From: Rapana venosa
Taxonomy: Eukaryota > Mollusca > Gastropoda > Neogastropoda > Muricidae
Length of the DNA: 64,000 bases
Direction of reading: 5' to 3'
NCBI GenBank assembly: GCA_028751875.1
Contig: CM054154.1
Coordinates: 52,245,476-52,309,475 of the forward strand
The position numbers were made by a program, and so were the translations under genes. The notes beneath the pieces are model-generated. The model did no database searches and had not been told where the DNA came from. It was given only the letters and a program-made list of their open reading frames with translations. Of the stretch, positions 18,412 to 47,887 are shown piece after piece (positions within the stretch are counted from its first letter, which is position 1; the number at the start of each line of letters is the position of its first letter).

Positions 18412-19165
18412 TTAAATTCTGGTGGACACATAAAAGCTGAAACCAAGATCAATGATGCTTCTAGACAAAATGAAATAGTCAATAATACTGGCCCCATTGT
18501 GAGCAATATAAGTAAAGTCTCCTGACTCATCACCAGGTAAAAAGCCATTAGTTATAACCAGATTAAATTGATCACATATATTCAGCAAATAGCGTCCAAA
18601 ATCATTACTGACAACATCTTTAGAAACACGTGCACAAACTCTCTCCTCCTCAGACGTATCTTCACTATCAAAAATATGAATATCCCTACCATTTCCCCCA
18701 CCAGTCCTTGCATTCAAATCCCCACACACTATAACAGGAAGATCACCAGAAACTTCAAAAATGTCAAGCAAACATTGCTCAAGCAAGGAAACGCCATTAT
18801 AAATATCAGTTTCATTATAAATCATACTTTGATATGGGGGCAAATACATCCCAAGCAAACTACAATACAGTTGTCATATTCTGTTTCCACCATAAGTGTT
18901 TGGTTTTTAAATCGATTTCTTATGAGCAAAGCTGCACCACCAGATAACCTCACAGTGGCTGCATAAGTTAATTTGACAGGAGGTGAAATAGTAATAAAAT
19001 ATTCTGGAAAAAGAAAACTTGGGAAATTTGTTGAAAATATCTCACAAAGAAATATGAAATCAAAATTATGCAGATATGATCTAACACAAGGATCATATAA
19101 GCAAGTAAGTCCTTCTGTATTGTATGCAACAAAGGAAAGGTAGTTTTTACCAGTATCAGTAGTAT
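18412..19165 (-). pseudogene. LINE-D ORF2, N-terminal AP-endonuclease
   Basis: EEP endonuclease domain read leftwards: YLSFVAYNTEGL, then FDFIFLCEIF (catalytic Glu), GGAALLIRNRF, the VCGDLNARTGGG motif and ASIIDYFILS. A frameshift near 18850 splits it between CIVVCLG and MYLPPYQS. The SDH box and everything after are absent, so it is truncated at about 18410. It is placed directly left of LINE-C1, whose other flank at 22063 is LINE-D ORF1. The two pieces read as one minus-strand element with ORF1 then ORF2, interrupted by LINE-C1. Confidence 0.75.
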
Positions 19166-19169
19166 CATG

Positions 19170-19345
19170 GGCATAATAATAATAATATATGGAATTTATA
19201 TAGCGCTGAATCTTGTAAAAAACAAACAAATCGAAGCGCTTGCACTCAATCATTTACAGGCATGCAACTCCCCTTAAACATAATGAACAACAGATTTCAA
19301 AACCATGCGCGCGCACGTATGCACGCATGCACGCACACACGCGCG

Positions 19346-19418
<73 letters not shown>

Positions 19419-22045
19419 GGAACAACACTTAGAAGGTGAAAGATGCTGTTGAAAATTAGGGACAGATATTTGAGGGGAAAGTCTCAGGTAGGAAATAAGT
19501 GTGTTTTGAGGCTGGATTTGAAGGTATCAAGTGAAGGCTTTTGGCGAAGTGAAAGAGGGAGGTCATTCCAGGTGGATGGACCAGAAACAGAGAAGGAGCG
19601 ACGGCCAACAGTGGTTTGTTTGAATCTGGGTGTTCAAAAGCACAAAGTATCTGCCGCTGAACGAAGGGAACGGGATGGAGTGTACAGATGAAGACAGTTA
19701 CATAGATAAGAGGGTGCAGATTTGTGGAGACATTTGAAACAGAGAGTATTGATTTTATACTCCAGTCTTTGTGAGACAGGCAGCCAGTGAAGAGATCGCA
19801 GAAGAGGAGTGATGTGTTCAGATTTTTTCTTTCTTAGGACCAGTCGAGCTGCAGAGTTTTGTATGCGTTGAAGAGAGTGGATAGATGATGCTGGTAGGCC
19901 AGCCAAAAGAGAATTACAGTAGTCTAAACGTGAAAGAATGAGAGATGTGACAAGCTTGGAAGTTGCATCAGTGACAGATACTTGCGAATCGCGCTTATGC
20001 GCCGTAATTGATAGTAGCAAGACTGGCAGGTCTGGGTGATGAATTTTTTCATAGAGAGTGTGTTGTCAAGAACTACTCCTAAATACTTCACAGAGTTGGA
20101 CAAAGGAACTGACGTACTGCCGAATTCTATTGAAGTTTTTGCGATAGAGGAAAGTTTATGTTGGGTCCCTATGAGCATGGCTTCGGTTTTATCGGCATTA
20201 AGTTGTAACTTGTTCTGAGTCATCCAGTTTTTAATGCCTTGAAGGCAGTAGGACATATTTGTCAGGAGGGAAGGCAAGTTTTCAACAGTATCACTGCACT
20301 GAAGCTGAGTATCATCGGCATAGAAATGATGATCAATATGGTGGTTGTTTATTATATGTGAGAGTGGAGCAGTGTAGAGAGTAAAGAGAACAGGGCCCAG
20401 GACTGATCCCTGCGGGACTCCACATTCCATTTTGACAGGTTTTGATTGAATTTTGTTTACAATAACTTTCTGGAACCTGTCTGTGAGGTATGGAGTAAAC
20501 CAGGTGAGGGCTTTGCCATTAATACCAAACGTATTTTGGAGGCGAGAAAGAAGAATTGATGTCTAGGTATAAAAGGCGCAGATAAGTAAAGAAAGTGAGG
20601 GGGAGTTTTTTCCCATCAAAGCATGTAGAAGTGTATCAAAGGGGTGGACTAGGGAGTTTCGGTGCTGTGGTGGGGCATAGGCAGTTTGAAAAGGGGGAAG
20701 GAGTCATTGGAATGAAGGTGACTTTTGAGTTTTTTGGAACACTTTTTCTAGTACTTTAGGACAAGGGTAAGTTTGAGACGGGCCCTATAATTCTTCAAAT
20801 TTTGGGGATCGGGTCGTGTTTTTTTCAGTAGGGTGTGCTTTTGCTGTTTAAGAGGATGGAAAAATTTCCTGACTAAAGAGGGGGTTTTACTATTTTAGTG
20901 ATAATAGGCAAAAGTTGTGGAAGGCTTGTGAGAAAACGGAGCAGGTATGGGATCAAGGTCGCTGATTTATAGTATTTCCTTCAGAATTGTATGATTTTTT
21001 TTTTCATTTGGGGGATGGAAGGAAAAGAGGGGTTCAGGAACGGGGGCGGGAGGCGAGGGGGAATTGAGTCGACCCAGTCTAGAGCATATGTTTCAAATTT
21101 TTGTCTGAAAAAAAGGGCAGAAAATTGGGGGAAATTTCAGACGGCTGTGGGGGTTAGGCAGGGAGTTGTTTTTGCAGATCCAAGGTTTGAGGGGGGAAAA
21201 AAGAGTTTTTTAGGTGTAGCACGGGAAACTGGGAAAGAAAGTTGTCTGTTTTTGCTGAATGGTTTAAATTTGACTTTGTTTTTTTTTTGGGAAAAGCTTT
21301 TGTTGATTTGGGTTTTTTGATTTCCCCCCCCACGGCGTTTATTTGCCGGCTTTTGCGCTTCGCTTCAATATGTCTTGGGTATACCTGGCGCACAGGGTCT
21401 GTGGGAGGGGATGGTCAAGGAGGTGCATGTCATAAGCATTGGCGGGGAATAGTGTTATAGTGATCAGGGGTCAGTGTGGTCAGAGGTTTGTGAAAAATTT
21501 CGGAAGTTGTGAAGGAAGGTATGAATGTTTAGCCTTAAAAATTTCGACGAGTAAAAATATTTCTTCTTTTACAAAGGTTTTTTGATTTAAATGGAAAAAG
21601 AATGGCGGGTGTTTAAAAATGCGTTCGTCGGTGACAGAAACAGAGTGACAAAATTAAAGAAAACTTTTTTTAACAGCCGTCTAAAATATGACCAGATCTG
21701 TGCGTTTCTCTTTTTTCAGTTGAGAGAGAGAATGGTTGGACGAGAAAGAGAAGACGTTTGAATCGGGGAAATGGTTGTCGAAATGGGAAATTGAAGGGCA
21801 CCCAAAAATTATAATTTAGTGGGGGGAGAGGCTGTAGTGGCGGGAGTGGACTGGTTTTTTGTGAAAAGAGAAAATGTTGGTTGTTTTTACGGCTGGGGGT
21901 GGACGGTTTAAAAGGCAAGATAGTAAAAGAGTGGCCGGTAGGTTGAGATTGTTTCGCAAAAATTCAAAAATTCATGTGAGAATTGAAGGTTGTGACTGAA
22001 AGAAAGAGACGGTTCCAATGTGTCTTTGAGAATGATGGCAATCCC
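19170..22045 (-). mobile_element. LINE-C1, L2/CR1-like LINE nested in LINE-D
   Basis: Open segments at 19634-20430 give an RT C-terminal half: MECGVPQGSVLGPVLFTLYT, HHFYADDTQL (catalytic, near 20310), [50 protein letters not shown], and one frame change near 19980. The 3' UTR contains a (CA)n tract (19345-19416 on plus) and ends at GCGCTATATAAATTCC with an ATT tail at 19170-19210. Sequence to the right of 20560 aligns with LINE-C3 (57.5-58.8 kb) but is very degraded. Likely TSD TCATGG at about 19158-19163 and 22046-22051. Confidence 0.75.
19345..19416. repeat. (CA)n microsatellite inside LINE-C1 3' UTR
   Basis: About 36 CA units preceded by CGCGCACG variants. The plus-strand LINE-C2 has a (TG)n tract at the equivalent place in its 3' UTR, so a dinucleotide tract appears to be part of the family. 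Confidence 0.85.
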
Positions 22046-22639
22046 ACCTCATGGCCGAGTCCCTAGGTGACAACATTAGATCTGGTGTCTGTGTTTTTAG
22101 GAGTACTTTTAAATGTTTCTGTTAACTGTGTTTGTCTGCATTTAGCTCTACTGCGTGTTTGTGGGCCAGCACAGGGTGTCTGAGTCAGTTCATTTTCAAC
22201 AGAGAAACATGACTGAGATAGAATGTCTTGGTTGGTGCTTCCTGACACTTCATGCAGGCCCTCTCCGTCACCCTCTTTGTCGCCTGTTGGAACAATGGCA
22301 CTGTCCTCTGACTTTTCTTCTGACACAAGTCTCTGCTTGACAAAGGTCTGACTTTCAGGGTCGAACATTACATCAGCTGAGTCTCCGTAACAGCCTTGTT
22401 GTGTTTGAGGCTGGAACAGATCCTGACTGGCACCACCACAGGGAGGAGAAAGAGTTGCGCTGCCCCGCACTGTCTCCTGTGGTGAAACAGGGGGGTTACT
22501 GGCTGGAGCCGTGGTGTCAGTCACTGCCTCTGCTGCTGTTGCACTGTGTACCTCTTCAGGGGCCAGGATTTCACAGCTAGAGTCCTGGAGGTGATTTGGA
22601 GACCGGACTTCTGTTGCGGCAGCTGCTCCTGTTGCTGTG

Positions 22640-23752
22640 GCGTCGGTCTTTCTGCCAGTTTCTTCCTTGCAGTCTGTACTGGCAGTCACAGGCAGCTGCT
22701 CCTGTTGCTGTGACGTCATTCTTTCTGCCAGTTTCTTCCTTGCAGTCTGTACTGGCAGTCACAGGCAGTTGTTGCTGTTGCTGTGACGTCGGTCTTTCTG
22801 CCAGCTTCTTCCTTGCAGTCTGTACTGGCAGTCACAGGCAGTTGTTGCTGTGACGTCAGTCTTTCTGCCAGCTTCTTCCTTGCAGTCTGTACTGGCAGTC
22901 ACAGGCAGTTGTTGCTGTTGCTGTGACGTCAGTCTTTCTGCCAGCTTCTTCCTTGCAGTCTGTACTGGCTGTCACAGGCAGTTGTTGCTGTGACGTCAGT
23001 CTTTCTGCCAGCTTCTTCCTTGCAGTCTGTACTGGCTGTCACAGGCAGTTGTTGCTGTGACGTCAGTCTTTCTGCCAGCTTCTTCCTTGCAGTCTGTACT
23101 GGCAATCACAGGCAGTTGTTGCTGTGACGTCAGTCTTTCTGCCAGCTTCTTCCTTGCAGTCTGTACTGGCAGTCACAGGAAGTTCTTGCTGTTGCTGTGA
23201 CGTCAGTCTTTCTGCCAGCTTCTTCCTTGCAGTCTGTACTGGCAGTCACAGGCAGTTCTTGCTGTTGCCGTGACGTCAGTCTTTCTGCCAGCTTCTTCCT
23301 TGCAGTCTGTACTGGAAGTCACAGGCAGTTGTTGCTGTTGCCGTGACGTCAGTCTTTCTGCCAGTTTCTTCCTTGCAGTCTGTACTGGCAGTCACAGGCA
23401 GTTGTTGCTGTTGCTGTGACGTCAGTCTTTCTGCCAGTTTCTTCCTTGCAGTCTGTACTGGCAGTCACAGGCAGTTGTTGCTGTGACGTCAGTCTTTCTG
23501 CCAGCTTCTTCCTTGCAGTCTGTACTGGCAGTCACAGGCAGTTGTTGCTGTGACGTCAGTTTTTTCTGCCAGCTTCTTCCTGCAGTCTTTTACTGGCAGT
23601 CACAGGCAGTTGTTGCTGTGACGTCAGTCTTTCTGCCAGCTTCTTCCTTGCAGTCTGTACTGGCAGTCACAGGCAGTTGTTGCTGTGACGTCAGTCTTTC
23701 TGCCAGCTTCTTCCTTGCAGTCTGTACTGGCAGTCACAGGCAGTTGCTCCTG
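22640..23752. repeat. 67/73-bp coding-region minisatellite, about 16 units
   Basis: Direct repeats of a unit with GACGTCAGTCTTTCTGCCAG, CTTCTTCCTTGCAGTCTGTA and CTGGCAGTCACAGGCAGTTG. Two lengths alternate, 67 and 73 bp, differing by one extra TTGCTG hexamer. On the minus strand a unit encodes QEQLPVTASTDCKEEAGRKT. Both unit lengths equal 1 modulo 3, so each added unit shifts the frame and the array breaks LINE-D ORF1. Confidence 0.92.
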
Positions 23753-24821
23753 ACTGGTTGATGGTTCCTGTTGGCACTCCCGTCGTGGAAGTGAGGGGTA
23801 ATCCGTCATGCTGGAGAGGGAGGGTGGACACTGTGAAGGCTGTTTTGCATTCTCTTCACGTGCTGTCTGTTCTGCACCGTGCTCTCTTCTGGGTGGATGT
23901 CTGACAGAGGATCTGGAGTTTGTGTTTTTGTGGAACCCCCGAGCCTGGAAGTCATTGTTTCTGTACAGGAGAAAGCCCATTACGAAAATAGGCATCTCTG
24001 CCCTGGTTCTTCAGCTCCTGTAGGACCTTTTGCTGTCGAGTGGTCAGCTCAGCCGCAACATGCACGCCAGCTCCTCAGCCATCTTCTTTCTCATGTCTCT
24101 GTTCTCCAAGAGAAACAGCTTGTCTGGCCAGGTGTGGAAGCACCAATGAGAAACACGTGGTCGACTGTGGTTTTGTTGTCTTCTTCCTAGACGGTAGGCA
24201 TATTCTATGTCAGCAGTTGTCCATACCTTGCTGTCATAGAATTTGTTCAGAAGTTTGACAACTTTCTCTCTGCACATCTTGCTGTCTTCTTTGGGACCTT
24301 CATACACATTGAAGAAACGCAGGTTGTTGTTTTTGGAATGTGCCTCAAGTTTGTCCACTTCTTCATCAAGATTGTTTGCTGTGTCAAAACAAAATCGTTG
24401 TTGATCACCAAGTTGCCTGCATTCTTGCTCCAAATAGTCACATGTCTTTCAGGCATTCAACGTCAGCCTTCAACCGGTTGTTCTCTGCCATGAGGGTTTC
24501 ATTGCAGTCTCTGACATGACTCAAGTCTCTGGTCAGAGCAGCTTGGTTCTGGCTCATCTCCTGCAGGTGTCTTGACATGTTGTCTGCCAAGTAGTTCAAG
24601 GAGCCCCCTAAGTGGTCCCCCATGTTCTGCATCCATCGCAGATCCGCAGCTTGAAGGGAAGCAAAGGCAGTAGAAGGAACATGGGTGGATGAAAGGGGAG
24701 GAGGAACAGGGAAAGGTGCAGCATAGGGTGTAGATGTTGAAACAAAACTATGCACAAAGTTGGATGAAGGTGGAAACTGTTCTGTTCCACTGTGGTGGAC
24801 ATCATTTCTTACTTCTCTTCC

Positions 24822-24848
24822 AGGTCCAGGGTTTGATTCAATGTCTCC
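24822..24848 (-). other. 2A translational-recoding peptide in LINE-D ORF1
   Basis: The nine codons read GDIESNPGP, a perfect match to the 2A consensus D-V/I-E-x-N-P-G-P. Such peptides make the ribosome skip the Gly-Pro bond, releasing the upstream product and restarting at Pro. Here the upstream product would be a 137-residue leader with two hydrophobic stretches, and the downstream product the RNA-binding ORF1 protein. 2A sequences are known in the N-termini of some APE-type LINEs. Leader to motif is in one open frame. Confidence 0.88.
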
Positions 24849-25439
24849 ACATTGCAGCAAAAATGCCAAAATGAAAACAATAGCAAAGACAGAAAGATTT
24901 TCAATCACACCCCAATTGTTTTCTTCACGTAAAGAAACACTGATTGTACACAAGAAAGGGATATGCTTGCTTTCCATGAAGAAGTGAGCTGTTGCCAACA
25001 TCTGTATCCAGTGGAGTTGAGGAAACGACTCGTTCAAAGATGGATGACATGCACTGGCACTGTAGTCACAAAGGCTGCAATAATTTTCACACGCTGTCCC
25101 ATTCAAGTCACTGGACCCATAACACAGTATCAGCAGGGAGAGAAGCACTGAAGCAGTGCGAACAAAGTTCAGTGGCCAGCACAGTTTCACCTTCCTTTGC
25201 TGTGTTTGCTGAATGGCCACTACTCTTCCTCGCATGAAAAACTGAAAACGCCAATAAAATTGGCCACATGCATACCTCTGAAGGATAAATTTGATACTGG
25301 CATGATCAGTGTACCTTCATGAAGAAGTTAGTACCAAAATTGCAGTGATGTACTTTGATTACATGCTACTAATTAGCAAAATTAACAGCACAAGTGAAAA
25401 GTACGCTTCTCTGTTGCTTGAGAATAGCTCACCTCCAGA

Positions 25440-25479
25440 GAGAGAGAGAGAGAAACGAGAGAGAAGAGAGAGGAGAGAG

Positions 25480-25510
<31 letters not shown>

Positions 25511-25512
25511 TG

Positions 25513-25543
<31 letters not shown>

Positions 25544-25547
25544 GAGA
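25440..25547. repeat. (GA)n microsatellite at a probable LINE 3' end
   Basis: GA repeats with AA interruptions. Read on the minus strand they follow GACAATAAATGGTCAAAGCG, a poly(A)-signal next to a (CT)n tail. Sequence to about 25700 on the right may be the 3' UTR of an unrecognised LINE; no coding is seen in it. Confidence 0.7.
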
Positions 25548-26170: not shown

Positions 26171-29100
26171 GAACGATTTATTCACAAAAAGGCCATTGGC
26201 CCATACATGAATGGGGTTGCCGAACAGCTTAGCATTTTGGTGCGGGTTAAAAGCAATAGTAAACTACAAACAAACAAAACAAAAAAACAACAAAAAACCG
26301 ACAACATGTTACTGTTAGGATAACAATTATCTCTTATTCTGAAAGCTCTACACAAATATAAAGTGAGGCTGTGCACAGCCTCAGGATGACTTGATGCCAG
26401 GAGTATAACAGAGTCTAAATAAATTAGGCTGTTACTATATTTAATATGTAGTTTCTGCCTAACATCCTCTAATACTGGACAGCACAACACAAAATGCACT
26501 TCATCCTCAGGTGCTTGCTTACATAATGGGCATAGCAGCCTGAGTCATCAATATCATGTTCTCTGTATCTCAATTTATTAACTTTTTTATCTGATACACA
26601 AGTCTAAACTTAGACATAAATTCTTTTCAAATGTATAATCCATAATCAAGTTTTAGATAAGGTTTTGACATCATGCGAACGTATAAATTGTCTGTACATT
26701 TGAAATCTTTCACTGTTTGTATATGATCACTCCATTGCTGCCATCGGCAGTCAATCAATCTTTGCCTGATAGCGTTAATAAACTCTCTACAATTCCGACT
26801 CCTTGATTGAGCCAAACAAATCCAAACCCCAGTTCACACAAACAGGTACGTATTTGTGAAGCCCAGGTGCTGCTTTTCCCCTTGACATCTAGATCATAAA
26901 GCATCTTGTAAGACTTAAAAGGTAACCTGCACTCATCTATATGCAGAATTCTTAATCAATATCTCACGCATCTTTACAGCAGCATTAACAGAGAGAGGAT
27001 ATCTATCAGTTTCACTATTAAACAGATCATTAGGTGTACGTCTATCTAAGCCTAAAAAACTGCTTTAAAGCAAAGAGGTGCACTGATTCACAATGGGGTT
27101 ACAGCTGCATCCAAGCCCCAAAATTTCTGCATCATATAACACAGTGGTGTATTTGTGCATCAAATATCTTCCATGACACAAGTCAAAAGAGTTATTATTC
27201 AATATTCGAGTTTTTTCAACACAAATAAACAAGCTTCTTTTACCTCGACTTGCCAGATCTTTACATGCAGTTATGCAACTAAGCTTTGTAGAAAAACAGA
27301 TTCCTAAATATTTATATACATTAATCACAGGCATGATATTTCCATTGTACAACCATTTTTCATGAGTAGCTAAATATCCACCTTTTCTGAATACAACGAT
27401 ATTACTCTTACACAGATTAACCGTAAGATCCAGTGATGTTGCAGCACTGCTTAGCTGGTTTAACTCGCTTTTGTAAGCCTACAACAGTTTCAGATAGCAG
27501 AATGACATCATCAGCAAGCAGAAGAATAAACAACTCTGAGAAATCTTGGGGAAAGTGGCACCATGTTTACCATTATTGATGACATCTCTGGCTAACTCAT
27601 TGATAAAACAGAAAACAATAAGGGGCTCATACATCACCCTGTTTAACACCAGGTGGTACAGTATATTATGTCGGTCACTTTAGTTCCACATCTTATTCTG
27701 CTTCTGACATTCTGATACATGGCTCTCAAAATCGTAATAGTTTTACCCTTCAAACCATTTTTTCGAGAATAGGCCACAACAAGTTCCTGTTAACAGAATC
27801 AATGTTTTTTACAGTCAATAAATGCTACATACAGCTTACGGTTATGAGCAAACTGTTTCTGTACAAACGCAAGCAGAGTGAACATATGATCTATAGTAGA
27901 GTATCCTCTCTTAAAACCAGCTTGGTGCTCACCTGTAATATTATTTTTCATAACCCATTCCTGTAACCTATTGTTAATAATAGTACTATATACCTTACTA
28001 CTTATGTCTGTATGAGAAATTCCCCGGTAGTTATTAGGGTTATCTACATCACCCTTTTTATGCAATGTTAGTATTATAGATTCAGCCAAGTTATCTGGAA
28101 AAAGACCATCATCAAAAATTTTGTTGAATAGTTTTAGAAGGAAAGCACAATATTTTGATCCCATATTTTAGCAATTCACCAATGATTTGATCAGGACCGG
28201 CTGCTTTCTCACTCTTTAATTTTCTAAGTGCCCCTAATATTTCATTTTTAGATATGGGACGATCAAAATCTTCCTCAGTTCCATTACTGTCAACATCAGT
28301 AATCATGGAGTTGGCTAATGAGTCTTTCTCCAACAGGATTTTGAAATGTTGAAACCATCTGTCAATGATATACTATTCTTTGGCTGACTTTTTCTAAATG
28401 ACACCTTAACACTTTTCCAGAACTGGACTTGAGAAGAGATAGATGACATAATATCTGCAAGTAAGGTCTTATTATACTGTTTCCTTTTTCGTTCAATCAT
28501 GCATTTATATTCCCTTCTTGTGACACAGTACACGTTTTTGTCCTCGTTTCTTAATGTTTTTCGGAAAGTCTTCAGACGTTTTCTGACCTTATATTTCATA
28601 CTTTTACATTCATTATCAAACCAAGTATCATTTGATGGACCTTTATTGATATGTACCTGTTTCTTCATACATTCAGCACTGGCTTTTATGAAACCATTAA
28701 ACAAATCTAAGCTTCATTAATGTTCTCATCAATCATCTGAAAGGCATTAAAAAAAATTCACACATGTTCACATCATGAGGATTTCTTTATAAACTGAGAG
28801 TTTGTTTCATCCCATACAAACTTTCCATAACAGGATGGCTCCTCAGTTTCCACACCTGTATATATATACTGGATTAATATATAATTCAACAGGAAGGTAT
28901 CGGAATCAGAACGCTTGGCAACAAACAAACGACATGAGTCAAAAATCTGAGAGAACAAATCATCTGACCACTAAAAAATATCATAACACCACATCCTCTC
29001 ATCAGAGATGTATGTATAGCATCCTTGTTGGTCACCATTAACATACGCCATTAGAATTTGTAAACTAAGAGCAGTGCACATATCAATAGTAATTTACCAT

Positions 29101-31115: not shown

Positions 31116-32594
31116 CAGAACGTTTCTGTCAGACATATAAAATCAAAGCTACGCACATAAGATACAAAATCTCTATCAGCCAGTTTTGACAACAATCCAT
31201 TTATGTTCCAAGACAAAAATGAAAAAGTTTTATTTGTTTTATCTGTATTGCCACAATTCAATTGATCCACACCATCTAGACTGACACTTTCACCAATTAC
31301 ATTGACATGACAAGACACAGCATTTATGCTTTCAACAGTAGTTAAAGAAGGCTCTTTATTAGAAGACTGCCTACAATACTCATGGTCAGCTGGTGTTAGA
31401 CCTAGGCCAAAGTCAGACCTGTCTTTGTCTAGCCCTGTGTGTGGTGATGTGTCACGCCTCACTGCATCAAGCCTCACTTGGCTAAGCCCTATTACATGAG
31501 TGTCTAACTGAGGCTGAGTGACCAGTATCTGTTTACTTTTCCTACCCTGTGAATTGAGACTATGGCCGGCCAACAAGCTATTCCCTTCTTTGAAGATCAT
31601 TAAGGGTCATCCTTTCGCCATTAATGATCAAATGATCAAAGACCATTCTCACATTTTTTTCCCTCTGCCCTAGCACTCTTCAAGTATGGGGTCAGATTGT
31701 GCCTAATATCTCTAACGGTTTTGGAAAAATCGTCGTCTACAAAAATCCTTGAACCTTTCAGAACGAGTTTTTTGCCTTCAATATCCTAAGCTTATCTTGA
31801 TAAAAAACACCTGGCAATAATGGGAGAGTTGGGTTTAGAATTTATCCTGTGCACACTATCAAACTTGACATCTGCTACATCCATTTTTTTCGTAAGAAGA
31901 TTTTTCACAACCATTTCACAATCAGCTCCAGTCTCATTACTTTTCTTTTCCATGCCATGAATAATGATGTTGTTCCGTCTTGACCGGCCTTCTTGATCGT
32001 CTGCTCTCCTTTCTAGTTTTTCCACTCTGTCCATTAGTTCTGTATTTGATTTTTTTAACTCAGCATTTTCAGACCTAAGATTGTTCACATCTTGTCTGAT
32101 ACCACACATTTGTCAACAATTGTATCTCGTTCTTCTTACTCTCCGTTGTTGACTTTAATAAGTTCTCCACTTTCTCCAACTTGGCCGTCATCGTGGTAAA
32201 TGTCTCATCAGGAGCCACTGTAGGAGAAGACTCCTGTCTACAGTGTATGGTTGTAGGTGTGCTGGCGGTCACATCTGCACTTACTTTAGTTTTCCGCACA
32301 CTTTTATCCTGTGATGGTGCTACGACCACCAGCACCGCTCATCAGGCTGGTTTGCCTCAGCTTGCGTCCTTGGCCAGCAGATTTAGGGGGGGGGTCCAGG
32401 GTTGGTCTCCACATCACTACACCGCAGCAAAAGTCCCCCCCAAAGAGATAGGTGAGGGTCAGTCCTAACAGTACACCGTCTCGCCCGCTCTTTAGCGTCA
32501 GGATGGGCGTCCGCATGGACGATTTGAATTCTGCCCGTTTCGACATGAAACAGGCGAATACTGCCGCAAATGTCCCACAGACAGCCCTGTACAA
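31116..32594 (-). pseudogene. LINE-A4 ORF1 joined to the start of the endonuclease
   Basis: Reading leftwards: a 2A relic (32392-32430), a short linker (KSAGQGRKLRQ), Ser/Thr-rich sequence, and a coiled coil (KLEKVENLLKSTTESKKNE; LRSENAELKKSNTELMDRVE). An RRM-like part follows (RRNNIIIHGMEKKSNETG, KFDSVHRINSKPNSPII), then a low-complexity tail. In the same frame as the tail (31049-31600) the EEP endonuclease begins: FSFLSWNINGLLSKLADRDF, FDFICLTETF. ORF1 and ORF2 are thus continuous in frame here. Frame changes near 31700, 32090 and 32390 break it. It ends where RTE-c was inserted. Confidence 0.75.
32392..32430 (-). other. 2A peptide relic in LINE-A4 with C9 homopolymer
   Basis: The frame reads LLRCSDVETNPGP, a clear 2A motif, and is open upstream to beyond 32570. 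Directly after the final Pro codon a run of nine C bases puts a stop (TAA) in frame, whereas the downstream ORF1 lies in the frame that eight C bases would give. Either the copy is decayed or the homopolymer length is a sequencing error. Confidence 0.75.
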
Positions 32595-32949: not shown

Positions 32950-34150
32950 AGCTCAAACTCGAATGATTTATTCACAAAAAGGCCATTGGCCCATACATGA
33001 AGGGGTTGCCGAACTGCTTAGTATTTTGTTGGGGTAAAAGCAATAGTAACGACAAATGTTACTGGATAACAAAAAGTCTGCTACAAAAATATGACTTAGG
33101 ATAACAATATCTCTCTTATTCTGAAAGTTTTACACAAATATAAAGTGAGGCTGCGCACAGCCTCAGGATGACTTGATGCCAGGAGTAAACAGAGTCTAAA
33201 TAAATTAGGCTGTCTACTACATTTAACAGGGATGTAGTTTCTGCCTAACATCCTCTAATACTGGACAGCACAACAACAAAATGTACTTCATCCTCAGGTG
33301 CTTGCTTACATAATGGGCATAGCAGCCTGAGGTCATCAATATCATGTTCTCTGTATCTCAATTTATTAACATTTTTATCTGATACACCAAGTCTAAACTT
33401 AGACATAATTCTCTTCAAATGTTTATCCATATCAAGTTTTAGATAAGGGTTGACATCATGTGAACGTATAAATTGTCTGTACATTTGAAATCTTTCACTG
33501 TTTTGTATATGATCACTCCATTGCTGCCATCGGCAGTCAATCAATCTTTGCCTGAAAGCGTTAATAAACTCTCTACAATTTCCGACTCCTTGATTGAGCC
33601 AAACAAATCCAAACCCCAGTTCACACAAACAGGTACGTATTTGTGTTGCCCAGTTGTTTTTCCCTTTGACATCTAGATCATAAAGCATCTTGTAGGATTT
33701 AAAAGGTAGCCTGCTCTCATTCATATGCAGAATCTTAATCCAATATCTAACGCATCTTACAGCAGCATTAACAGAGAGAGGATATCTATTGGTTTCACTA
33801 TAAACAAGATCATTAGGTGTATGTATACCTAAGCCTAAAAACTGCTTTAAAGCAAAGAGGTGCACTGATTCACAATGTGTTACAGCTGCATCCAGTCCCC
33901 AAATTTCCGCGCCATATAACACAGTGGGTTGTATCTGTGCATCAAATATCTAAATGAACAAGTCGAAAGAGTTATTATTCAATATTCATAGTTTTTTCAA
34001 AACAATTAACAAGCTTCTTTTACCTCTACTTGCCAGATCTTTACATGCAGTTATGCAACTAAGCTTTGTAGAAAAACAGATTCCTAAATATTTATATACA
34101 TTAATCACAGGCATGACTTTTCCATTGTACAACCACTTTTACCACAATTG
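32950..34150 (-). pseudogene. LINE-A5, 5'-truncated 3' end of a LINE-A
   Basis: A minus-strand copy of the LINE-A 3' end. The segment 33245-33922 is open and includes YGAEIWGLDAAVTHCESVHL, QRLIDCRWQQWSDHIQ, and a terminal zinc-finger-like CPLCKQAPEDEVHF. Further upstream, to about 34150, the thumb region is out of frame (near 33930). It is closely similar to 26180-27360 of LINE-A4. The 3' UTR has AATAAA directly before the (CT)n tail. Truncation near 34150 is a usual outcome of incomplete reverse transcription. Confidence 0.82.
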
Positions 34151-46373: not shown

Positions 46374-47620
46374 TGACGAAAACAAGACGTACCAGATCTA
46401 CCTCCTGCTATCTGGCAAGTGTGACCACAGACAAATGTCATGGAGAAGGCAGTGACAACGTGCCTTCAAGCCAGAAAGTCAACAAGACATCTGAGTTAAC
46501 TGATGGACCTTCATCTTCGAATAGTGTTGCTAATGACAAGGGCAACAGTCATTCAGATTGTCAGCAGAATAGTGCCCTTATTTTAGATCTGAAGGCCACT
46601 ATTCTGCTACTTGTGGAGAAGGTGACCCACCTTGAAAAGAGGTGGCAGGGCGGGTGTTGGCGGCACACGGCATAGGAGCGGCAAAAGAATCCTGTCCCTA
46701 TCGCTGCCTATCACCTACACTGGTGCCCTTCGACAACAGACTGCTCCCACATCCTCTGGGAAAAGTCAGCCAGGCCAACATCCTAGACCCAACAGGTCAG
46801 TGCAGTCCATTTCAGCTCCCAATACCAAAAAAGAAAAACGGACAAGCCCAAGAACACCACTTTGACGCAAAAACCATCTGACGTCACAGCATGTAGTACA
46901 GACCACAACTCAGATCTGCCCACTGTCATCCTTCTCCAGGACTCTGTTCTAAATGGCGTTAATGCAAAACGTCTAGGACAGTCCTATGGATTAAGAGTGG
47001 AAAAGAGAAAGTCACACGAAATTAGTGACATTTCTCAGATAATGAGTAATGCCTCTGATATACAAAAAACACATGCTGTAGTTATTCATTGTGGGACAAA
47101 CGATCTTAAAAAGTCCGATCCTCATGAAGCCAGCAAACACCTTGTTAAAAATGTGAAACAGATTGTAGCTTCTTTTCCTGAGACAAAAATTGTCATTAGC
47201 AAGGTTGCCCCTGCGAAAAACCCAAGTCTTCAGATGAAGAGAGAACACTTCAATGCAATGACTTGCTCCCGGTTATACCATCTAAACAATGATTCATTTG
47301 TCTCCCACGAAAATATGTACACCCACTATCATTACAAAGATTCATTTCATCCAAATGCAAAAGGCTCCAGTATACTGGCTAGAAAGATTGGCAGACATGT
47401 TCATGCATTGTTTTGGCAAACAGCAAAGAGGAGACCAAGACGCCAATTTCATCCCATGAACCTTCATCCAGTACCACGCTACGCCTTTGACGACCACTAC
47501 CAGCAGCCAGTGTACAACCAGCCACAGTACGAGCATGTCTTCCAGCAGGACTACCCCGGGTGGAGACAACATGCTCGACATAACAAGTTTCGTGTGTTGA
47601 AAAATCATTCTGAATGGTGA
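46374..47620 (+). pseudogene. I-type LINE ORF1 with SGNH esterase domain
   Basis: Starts MTKTRRTRSTSCYLASV at 46374. A predicted coiled coil (ALILDLKATILLLVEKVTHL) precedes a frame change near 46640, a Pro/Ser-rich part, and another near 46860. The last frame (46862-47620) carries an SGNH/GDSL-like hydrolase: LLQDSVLNGVNAKRLG (catalytic Ser), HCGTNDLK (GxND block) and KDSFHPNAKG (Asp and His). The tail is rich in Tyr, Gln and Pro. Esterase-type ORF1 proteins are known in CR1/L2-group LINEs, where they may act on lipids or acylated partners. The next gene, 270 bp downstream, is an I-type endonuclease, so this is the ORF1 of that element. Confidence 0.72.
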
Positions 47621-47887
47621 CATTTTGTAGTCTTTGCTTTGCACCAGCTATAGATCTAGTACAGTAAATAGACACTGTGACTTCTGCTCACATCTGCAGC
47701 AGCTGCTCTACATGATCCTGAATACTTTGTTGTTTTGTTTTCTTTTATTGCTGTTTTAAGTTAATTATCAGAACGTTTATTACTAGTGCACTTGGACACT
47801 TTTAATTAAGGTGGTTTTTTTCTTTTAGTGTTACCTCCAATACATTTTAAATTTGCGTGTTGTTTTTTTTAAATTAGTTAGGGTTTT

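What the first reader, a model, noticed from the sequence alone, without database searches (positions are those of the whole stretch)
24822..25235. LINE-D ORF1 begins with a secretory-type leader and a perfect 2A peptide
A 137-residue leader with a signal-like stretch, Cys-rich part and second hydrophobic segment ends in GDIESNPGP, ahead of an RNA-binding ORF1 protein. Translation should yield a separate leader and ORF1p. 2A peptides in APE-type LINEs are known, and some 2A leaders can act as signal sequences; a leader with glycosylation-type sites and two hydrophobic stretches suggests a membrane or secreted product from a retrotransposon.
Basis: partly seen in the sequence, partly recalled or inferred. 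Interest (0 to 1): 0.82.

Follow-up and report, generated by a model that had tools for sequence, protein, structure and literature searches.

The report
LINE retrotransposon with 2A-released leader peptide
A decayed copy of a jumping gene starts its first protein with a 137-residue leader that ends in a textbook 2A "ribosome skipping" signal; the 2A signal is convincing and of a known kind, while the idea that the leader goes to a membrane or is secreted is plausible but rests on one copy.

Summary
On the minus strand an ATG at 25235 opens a 137-residue leader ending in FLLQCG-DIESNPG|P (24863-24822), in frame with an ORF1-like protein. Chance is unlikely: 200 simulated windows held no DxExNPGP, and 0 of 5000 composition-matched stretches stayed open over 292 codons. 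The 2A fits a StopGo class tested in vitro: L-rich, G at p11, D at p12, S at p15 (PMC12846837). Downstream lie broken ORF1 pieces, a tandem array, a TAG, a 5'-truncated L2 insertion and an AP-endonuclease piece: a decayed APE-type LINE with an N-terminal 2A, a known kind.

The secretory part is weaker. Two hydrophobic segments, a basic N-region and an acidic Cys-containing loop exist, but 15 of 129 window ORFs of 100+ aa also have two such segments, the start codon is weak, and no second copy was found; the host genome search did not complete. A 2A acting as signal sequence is published for sea-urchin NLR proteins (PMC4981915). Another 2A lies at 32392-32415.

The parts
24825..25235 (-). Leader, 137 aa, Met1 to Gly137 (released at Gly137 if StopGo works)
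   Evidence: open frame 25316-24441; chance openings 0 of 5000 for 292 codons and 6 of 5000 for the 165 codons 25316-24822
25116..25172 (-). First hydrophobic segment (res. 22-40), after a basic N-region (res. 1-28: +6/-0): possible signal peptide or signal anchor
   Evidence: KD19 1.62; charges; helix 22-39 in a low-confidence model, mean pLDDT 53.5
24912..25115 (-). Loop 41-108, +2/-7, 5 Cys, sequons N45 and N68: predicted lumenal if the leader enters the ER
24855..24911 (-). Second hydrophobic segment (res. 109-127), 10-28 residues before the release Gly
   Evidence: KD19 2.37; helix 108-127
24822..24863 (-). StopGo/2A signal FLLQCG-DIESNPG|P (p6-p19)
   Evidence: class match, by eye, to PMC12846837 section 10
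24441..24824 (-). ORF1 protein N-part from Pro138: Pro/Ser-rich stretch then coiled-coil-like region (by eye); the frame ends at a TGA after residue 265
   Evidence: weak, below-cut-off Pfam matches over 213-263
24047..24448 (-). ORF1 continued in another frame: coiled-coil-like plus RRM-like piece (by eye)
   Evidence: no Pfam match at E<=0.1; strand-helix order compatible with an RRM but mean pLDDT 46
22629..23744 (-). Tandem array in the ORF1 region, about 16 copies of a 67-73 bp unit
22066..22758 (-). ORF1 C-terminal part, ends at TAG 22063-22065
   Evidence: no Pfam match at E<=0.1
18415..19170 (-). Start of ORF2, AP-endonuclease region, in two frames with a break near 18850
   Evidence: 18873-18415 matches PF03372 at E 4.4e-6, above cut-off; the piece before it is endonuclease-like by eye only (no Pfam match at E<=0.01 for 19178-18828) and is the one in frame with the ORF1 end when the flanks are bridged at CCATGA
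19171..22048 (-). 5'-truncated L2 element inserted between ORF1 and ORF2; not part of the 2A LINE
   Evidence: RVT_1 E 4.6e-18 at 20562-19927; related L2 copies in the window; CCATGA at both ends, found by eye (the automatic word search picked another, 7-base word). Limits approximate

Best explanation
This is the 5' part of a decayed, APE-type LINE whose ORF1 begins with a leader ending in an L-rich 2A/StopGo signal. Inferred working: ribosomes make residues 1-137, the FLLQCG-DIESNPG nascent chain locks in the exit tunnel, the leader is released at Gly137, and translation resumes at Pro138 to give free, cytosolic ORF1p that can bind element RNA. If the first hydrophobic segment engages SRP, the leader becomes a small ER-membrane protein with cytosolic N-end, lumenal Cys-containing loop and a 9-residue cytosolic tail. 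The tail is that short because the second segment is still inside the ribosome when release occurs (30-40 residues fit in the tunnel, PMC2978324). Shown: sequence, frame, motif, endonuclease downstream. Inferred: skipping, ER entry, topology, any use of the leader.
For: Perfect DIESNPGP with p11=G, p12=D, p15=S and an L-rich hexapeptide ending in CG, the combination described for StopGo motif classes 2 and 6; class 6 was assayed and supported StopGo in vitro, class 2 was not assayed (PMC12846837 section 10). Motif and long frame are absent from simulations. An endonuclease piece lies downstream. A second, different LINE-like ORF1 in the window has a 2A upstream of a coiled-coil-like piece (32392-32415 and 32112-31795). 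Charges favour N-in with a lumenal loop: residues 1-28 +6/-0, loop +2/-7.
Against: A single copy with frame breaks after residue 265. No relative of leader or ORF1 in any collection searched, although the same protein database gave 2076 relatives of the window's L2 RT. Weak ATG context and five upstream ATGs. Two-segment hydrophobicity is common in window ORFs, 15 of 129. The tail is +0/-2 and so gives no charge support for C-in. Hessa-type sums of +3.39 and +0.64. Leader model of low confidence.
Confidence: 0.6

Rival explanations
1. The leader has no targeting role: the second hydrophobic stretch exists for StopGo inside the ribosome tunnel, and the first is incidental or not even translated, initiation being at Met79 or Met87 to give a short leader with one hydrophobic segment. 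Its only purpose is to set the amount and N-end of ORF1p.
For: Hydrophobic contacts in the tunnel matter for StopGo (PMC12846837). The ATG at 25235 has a weak context with five upstream ATGs; Met79 and Met87 are in frame. Two hydrophobic windows are not rare in window ORFs (15 of 129).
Against: The hydrophobic run begins at residue 109-113, 12 to 16 residues before the p6-p11 hexapeptide (125-130), so it is longer than that motif. The frame is open well before Met79; chance keeps the 165 codons 25316-24822 open in 6 of 5000. Charge asymmetry between N-region and loop fits a membrane protein.
Confidence: 0.3
2. Dual targeting as in the sea-urchin NLR 2A signal: the share of chains that do not skip carries the leader and is brought to the ER, so ORF1p exists in a cytosolic and a membrane-tethered form.
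For: Shown for the SpNLR2A6 sequence (PMC4981915). Sequences 28-48 residues upstream of the site can inhibit 2A when in the translocon (PMC2978324).
Against: The motif class that was assayed (6) supported StopGo. Here the second segment could stop transfer and leave ORF1p cytosolic even if unskipped, unlike SpNLR. Nothing in this window measures the ratio.
Confidence: 0.2
3. The leader is not part of the LINE family but an accident of this copy (flanking DNA or a rearrangement placed in frame), or assembly error.
For: Only one copy. CT-type simple repeat 25437-25547 just upstream. Part of the neighbouring L2 looks error-rich (46.3 homopolymer runs per kb against 12.4-22.3 in the five other stretches measured).
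Against: A perfect StopGo class motif in frame with the ORF1 frame is hard to get by accident. The 292-codon frame is unbroken while the ORF1 parts after it are broken.
Confidence: 0.1

Closest known systems
2A/StopGo in APE-type non-LTR retrotransposons (Odon et al. 2013, doi 10.1093/molbev/mst102; paper not held; reference seen, content recalled)
   Same: APE-type LINE with a canonical NPGP motif at the N-end of its coding region; recalled as found in Rex1, Crack, L2, L2A, CR1 and Ingi clades and active in tests for several
   Different: The leader is 137 aa with a separate first hydrophobic segment and a Cys-containing loop; whether the published elements have such leaders I could not check
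Sea-urchin NLR '2A-like signal sequences' (Roulston et al. 2016, PMC4981915)
   Same: Hydrophobic stretch directly before the NPGP at the N-end, which can serve ER targeting and skipping
   Different: There one 26-aa segment does both jobs on an NLR protein; here a 137-aa leader with two segments on a retrotransposon ORF1, function untested
L-rich StopGo motif classes 2/6 (PMC12846837)
   Same: L-rich hexapeptide ending in (A/S/C)G, p12=D, p15=S
   Different: Described there from virus ORFs; this one is in a LINE
Type II (L1-like) ORF1 of CR1/L2 LINEs (PMC4120745, passages)
   Same: Coiled-coil-like region followed by an RRM-like piece, 5' of an AP endonuclease
   Different: No significant match to a Pfam family, so resemblance is by architecture only; long tandem array in the C-terminal part

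Membership tests
StopGo/2A element | Core (D/G/C/N)(V/I)ExNPGP in frame | tested here: met
   DIESNPGP at 24845-24822 minus
StopGo/2A element | Matching upstream class motif (p6-p11) with G at p11 when p12 is D | tested here: met
   FLLQCG; comparison with PMC12846837 section 10, made by eye, not with FIMO
StopGo/2A element | Skipping of the Gly-Pro bond in translation | not testable with these tools
   Needs in vitro translation
APE-type non-LTR retrotransposon | AP endonuclease domain in ORF2 | tested here: met
   PF03372 E 4.4e-6 for 18873-18415, 27.1 bits against a cut-off of 24.5; its link to this ORF1 runs across the L2 insertion and one frame break
APE-type non-LTR retrotransposon | Reverse transcriptase of the same element | tested here: inconclusive
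   The RT at 20562-19927 belongs to the inserted L2; no RT was assigned to the 2A LINE, so its clade is open
Type II (L1-like) ORF1p | Coiled coil, RRM and CTD (Transposase_22) | tested here: inconclusive
   No Pfam match at E<=0.1 for 24448-24047; weak AF2 model; similarity to the second 2A element's piece reached by 2 of 2000 shuffles for the whole piece, coiled coil included, and by 93 of 2000 for the RRM core
2A-type signal sequence (SpNLR) | N-terminal hydrophobic segment that targets to the ER | tested here: inconclusive
   Hydropathy, N-region charge and (-3,-1) sites allow it; Hessa-type sums do not clearly favour insertion; no SignalP or TM predictor at hand; 15 of 129 window ORFs also have two such segments
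2A-type signal sequence (SpNLR) | Leader conserved in other copies | not tested
   No other copy in reach; the genome search did not complete

The most novel reading that the evidence does not exclude
An animal LINE family encodes, besides ORF1p and ORF2p, a third protein: a small ER-membrane glycoprotein with a Cys-containing lumenal loop, made in a fixed ratio to ORF1p by StopGo, its last transmembrane segment doubling as the tunnel helix that drives the skip, and used by the element (for example to seat its RNA and ORF1p on ER membranes or for release from the cell).
Probability: 0.2. Interest if true: 0.8.

Novelty: new member of a known kind. Interest (0 to 1): 0.38.

Why it matters
2A in LINEs is known, and so is a 2A that doubles as a signal sequence, but a LINE that also makes a dedicated membrane or secreted leader protein would link retrotransposons to the secretory pathway without an envelope gene. 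The geometry is testable: a chain released at 2A with a hydrophobic helix 10-28 residues before its end should be, by construction, either a stop-transfer or a tail-anchored type of protein.

Tried and rejected
Relatives: protein database with residues 1-265 (629 candidates, none at E<=0.01) and with a longer query holding the next ORF1 piece (3689 candidates, none at E<=1). A control with the window's L2 RT gave 2076 relatives at E<=1e-5 among 2442 candidates, 120 listed, the closest in identity 95% over 56% of the query; so the database does hold LINE proteins, but matches are limited by length and shared words. Viral contigs (6 peptide patterns, 3 stretches, none confirmed) and prokaryote genomes (19 stretches, none confirmed): neither collection is where an animal LINE is expected. 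tblastn of the ORF against the window: itself, the second 2A site at E 0.025, and matches at E 0.4 or worse.

Rejected: that the RT at 20562-19927 is this LINE's own. It lies in a 5'-truncated L2 between ORF1 and the endonuclease.

Rejected: that the ORFs at 3363-1484 are a second copy with leader. The 3363-2839 piece is not similar to the RRM-like piece (blastp E 1.8), and no site within one mismatch of DxExNPGP lies upstream of it.

Structures: AF2 without alignment gave mean pLDDT 46 (RRM-like piece) and 53.5 (leader), too low for fold searches, so none was run. PDB by sequence: leader no match at E<=1; RRM-like piece best E 0.21, to STIM1. Rfam: no match in the window.

Papers: Odon et al. 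2013 and Heras et al. 2006 are not held. Seven text searches (one search listed 20 of 68) listed no paper whose title or shown abstract start describes a 2A-released membrane leader in a LINE; that is no proof of absence. In PMC11203168 (gastropod LINEs) I saw only the passages.

Full report
What is there. The minus strand from 25235 to 24822 encodes a 137-residue leader followed by Pro138, with GDIESNPGP as the last nine residues of the stretch. The frame is open from 25316 to 24441, 292 codons. Two sites in six frames match DxExNPGP with at most one mismatch: this one and 32392-32415. In 200 first-order Markov windows no DxExNPGP occurred and the longest stop-to-stop frame was 253 codons; with local composition the 292-codon frame was open in 0 of 5000 and the 165 codons 25316-24822 in 6 of 5000.

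The 2A signal. In StopGo numbering it is p6-p11 FLLQCG and p12-p19 DIESNPGP. A survey of nearly 10,000 StopGo sequences in virus genomes (PMC12846837; abstract, sections 6 and 10 and some passages seen) reports L-rich upstream motifs 2 and 6 ending in (A/S/C)G, associated with p12=D and p15=S, and a strong preference for G at p11 when p12 is D. This site has all of these. Of the motif classes, 1, 3, 4 and 6 were assayed there and all four supported StopGo. Skipping is therefore likely, but it is inferred, and my class assignment is by eye.

The element. ORF1 continues past residue 265 only in other frames: a 134-aa piece with coiled-coil-like and RRM-like sequence (24448-24047), a further piece (24010-23627), a tandem array of about 16 units of 67-73 bp (22629-23744) and a tail ending in TAG at 22063-22065. 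The pieces 24448-24047 and 22758-22066 have no Pfam match at E<=0.1; the first 265 residues match three families weakly and below cut-off, over the coiled-coil-like part; 24010-23627 was not scanned. So 'RNA-binding ORF1p' is an architectural inference. Coiled coil plus RRM plus CTD is a known ORF1 type in CR1 and L2 lineages (PMC4120745, passages). Next comes a 5'-truncated L2 (about 22048-19171; RVT_1 E 4.6e-18; other L2 copies in the window) with CCATGA on both sides, which I found by eye. With the flanks set side by side there, the frame of the ORF1 tail runs through the single TAG into a stretch that reads by eye like the start of an endonuclease, but has no Pfam match of its own at E<=0.01; a second frame is also open across the join. 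After a further frame break the next piece, 18873-18415, matches Exo_endo_phos at E 4.4e-6. The 2A LINE is thus APE-type if that endonuclease is its own, as position and strand suggest. Its RT was not identified and its clade is open. Whether the TAG is native or a mutation is unknown.

The leader. Two hydrophobic segments (best 19-residue windows 22-40 and 109-127), residues 1-28 +6/-0, loop 41-108 +2/-7 with 5 of the 8 Cys and two usable sequons, and a 9-residue tail of +0/-2. Of 5000 shuffles of the leader, 146 reach the stronger segment and 14 reach both; but 15 of 129 ORFs of at least 100 aa in this window, this one included, have two windows of KD 1.6 or more, so the feature alone is not striking. 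Scales disagree: Wimley-White octanol sums favour both segments (-8.9 and -8.6), unweighted Hessa-type sums favour neither (+3.4 and +0.6); the values are recalled. AF2 shows helices at 22-39 and 108-127 with mean pLDDT 53.5. The ATG at 25235 has context TTTTTCATGC and five ATGs lie upstream within 130 bases; Met79 and Met87 are alternative starts.

Mechanism. With Gly137 in the peptidyl-transferase centre, the 30-40 residues in the tunnel (PMC2978324, outline and Discussion seen) include the whole second segment, so the leader is released before that segment emerges. If the first segment has already brought the ribosome to the translocon, N45, 92 residues from the centre, is beyond the 65-70 residues held by ribosome plus translocon and could be glycosylated; N68 is on the edge. 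If not, the leader would be a tail-anchored type of protein. In both cases skipped ORF1p would start with Pro in the cytosol. Sea-urchin NLR proteins show that such segments can both skip and target (PMC4981915; outline, first part of Results, and Discussion seen), and translocating sequences can lower skipping in some contexts (PMC2978324). Which applies here is not shown.

Relatives and limits. No relative of leader or ORF1 was found. The control shows that LINE proteins are in the protein database, so the element is rare or fast-evolving, or its intact form falls outside the length and word limits of the search. The host genome, the one place where other copies should be, could not be searched: eleven requests did not complete. 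The host is taken to be an animal from its LINEs; nothing here identifies it.

Verdict. The 2A part is convincing and a new member of a known kind. The membrane or secreted product is a fair hypothesis without conservation evidence.

Noticed in passing
32392-32430 (minus): A second, different element has a 2A (LLLRCS-DVETNPGP) upstream of a coiled-coil-like piece (32112-31795); an RVT_1 RT lies further on at 30615-30160 (E 2.3e-19), its link to the 2A not shown. The leader is in broken frames, with a hydrophobic stretch in a neighbouring frame; p11 is S, not the preferred G.
   Followed up: partly
22629-23744: About 16 tandem copies of a 67-73 bp unit inside the ORF1 region of the 2A LINE. Units of such length shift the frame and bring stops, so the array is not one open frame in this copy.
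   Followed up: partly
22063-22065: A single TAG separates ORF1 from the next open frame when the L2 insertion is bridged at CCATGA; it could be readthrough, reinitiation or a mutation in a one-ORF element.
   Followed up: partly
20566-22054: The 5' half of the L2 has 46.3 homopolymer runs (4+) per kb against 12.4-22.3 in the five other stretches measured, with an edge near 20566: looks like unpolished or damaged sequence.
   Followed up: partly
46787-47620 (plus): GDSL/SGNH-type esterase ORF (PF00657 E 1.8e-7), followed at 47882 by an endonuclease-like ORF (by eye, not tested): probably an esterase-type LINE ORF1.
   Followed up: partly
26462-27147 and 33248-33949 (minus): Two related stretches (53% and 58% identical in the best two pieces) that read by eye like LINE ORF2 C-terminal regions (no Pfam match for 33949-33251), with CT-type simple repeats beside both; one lies just upstream of the 2A LINE.
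   Followed up: no
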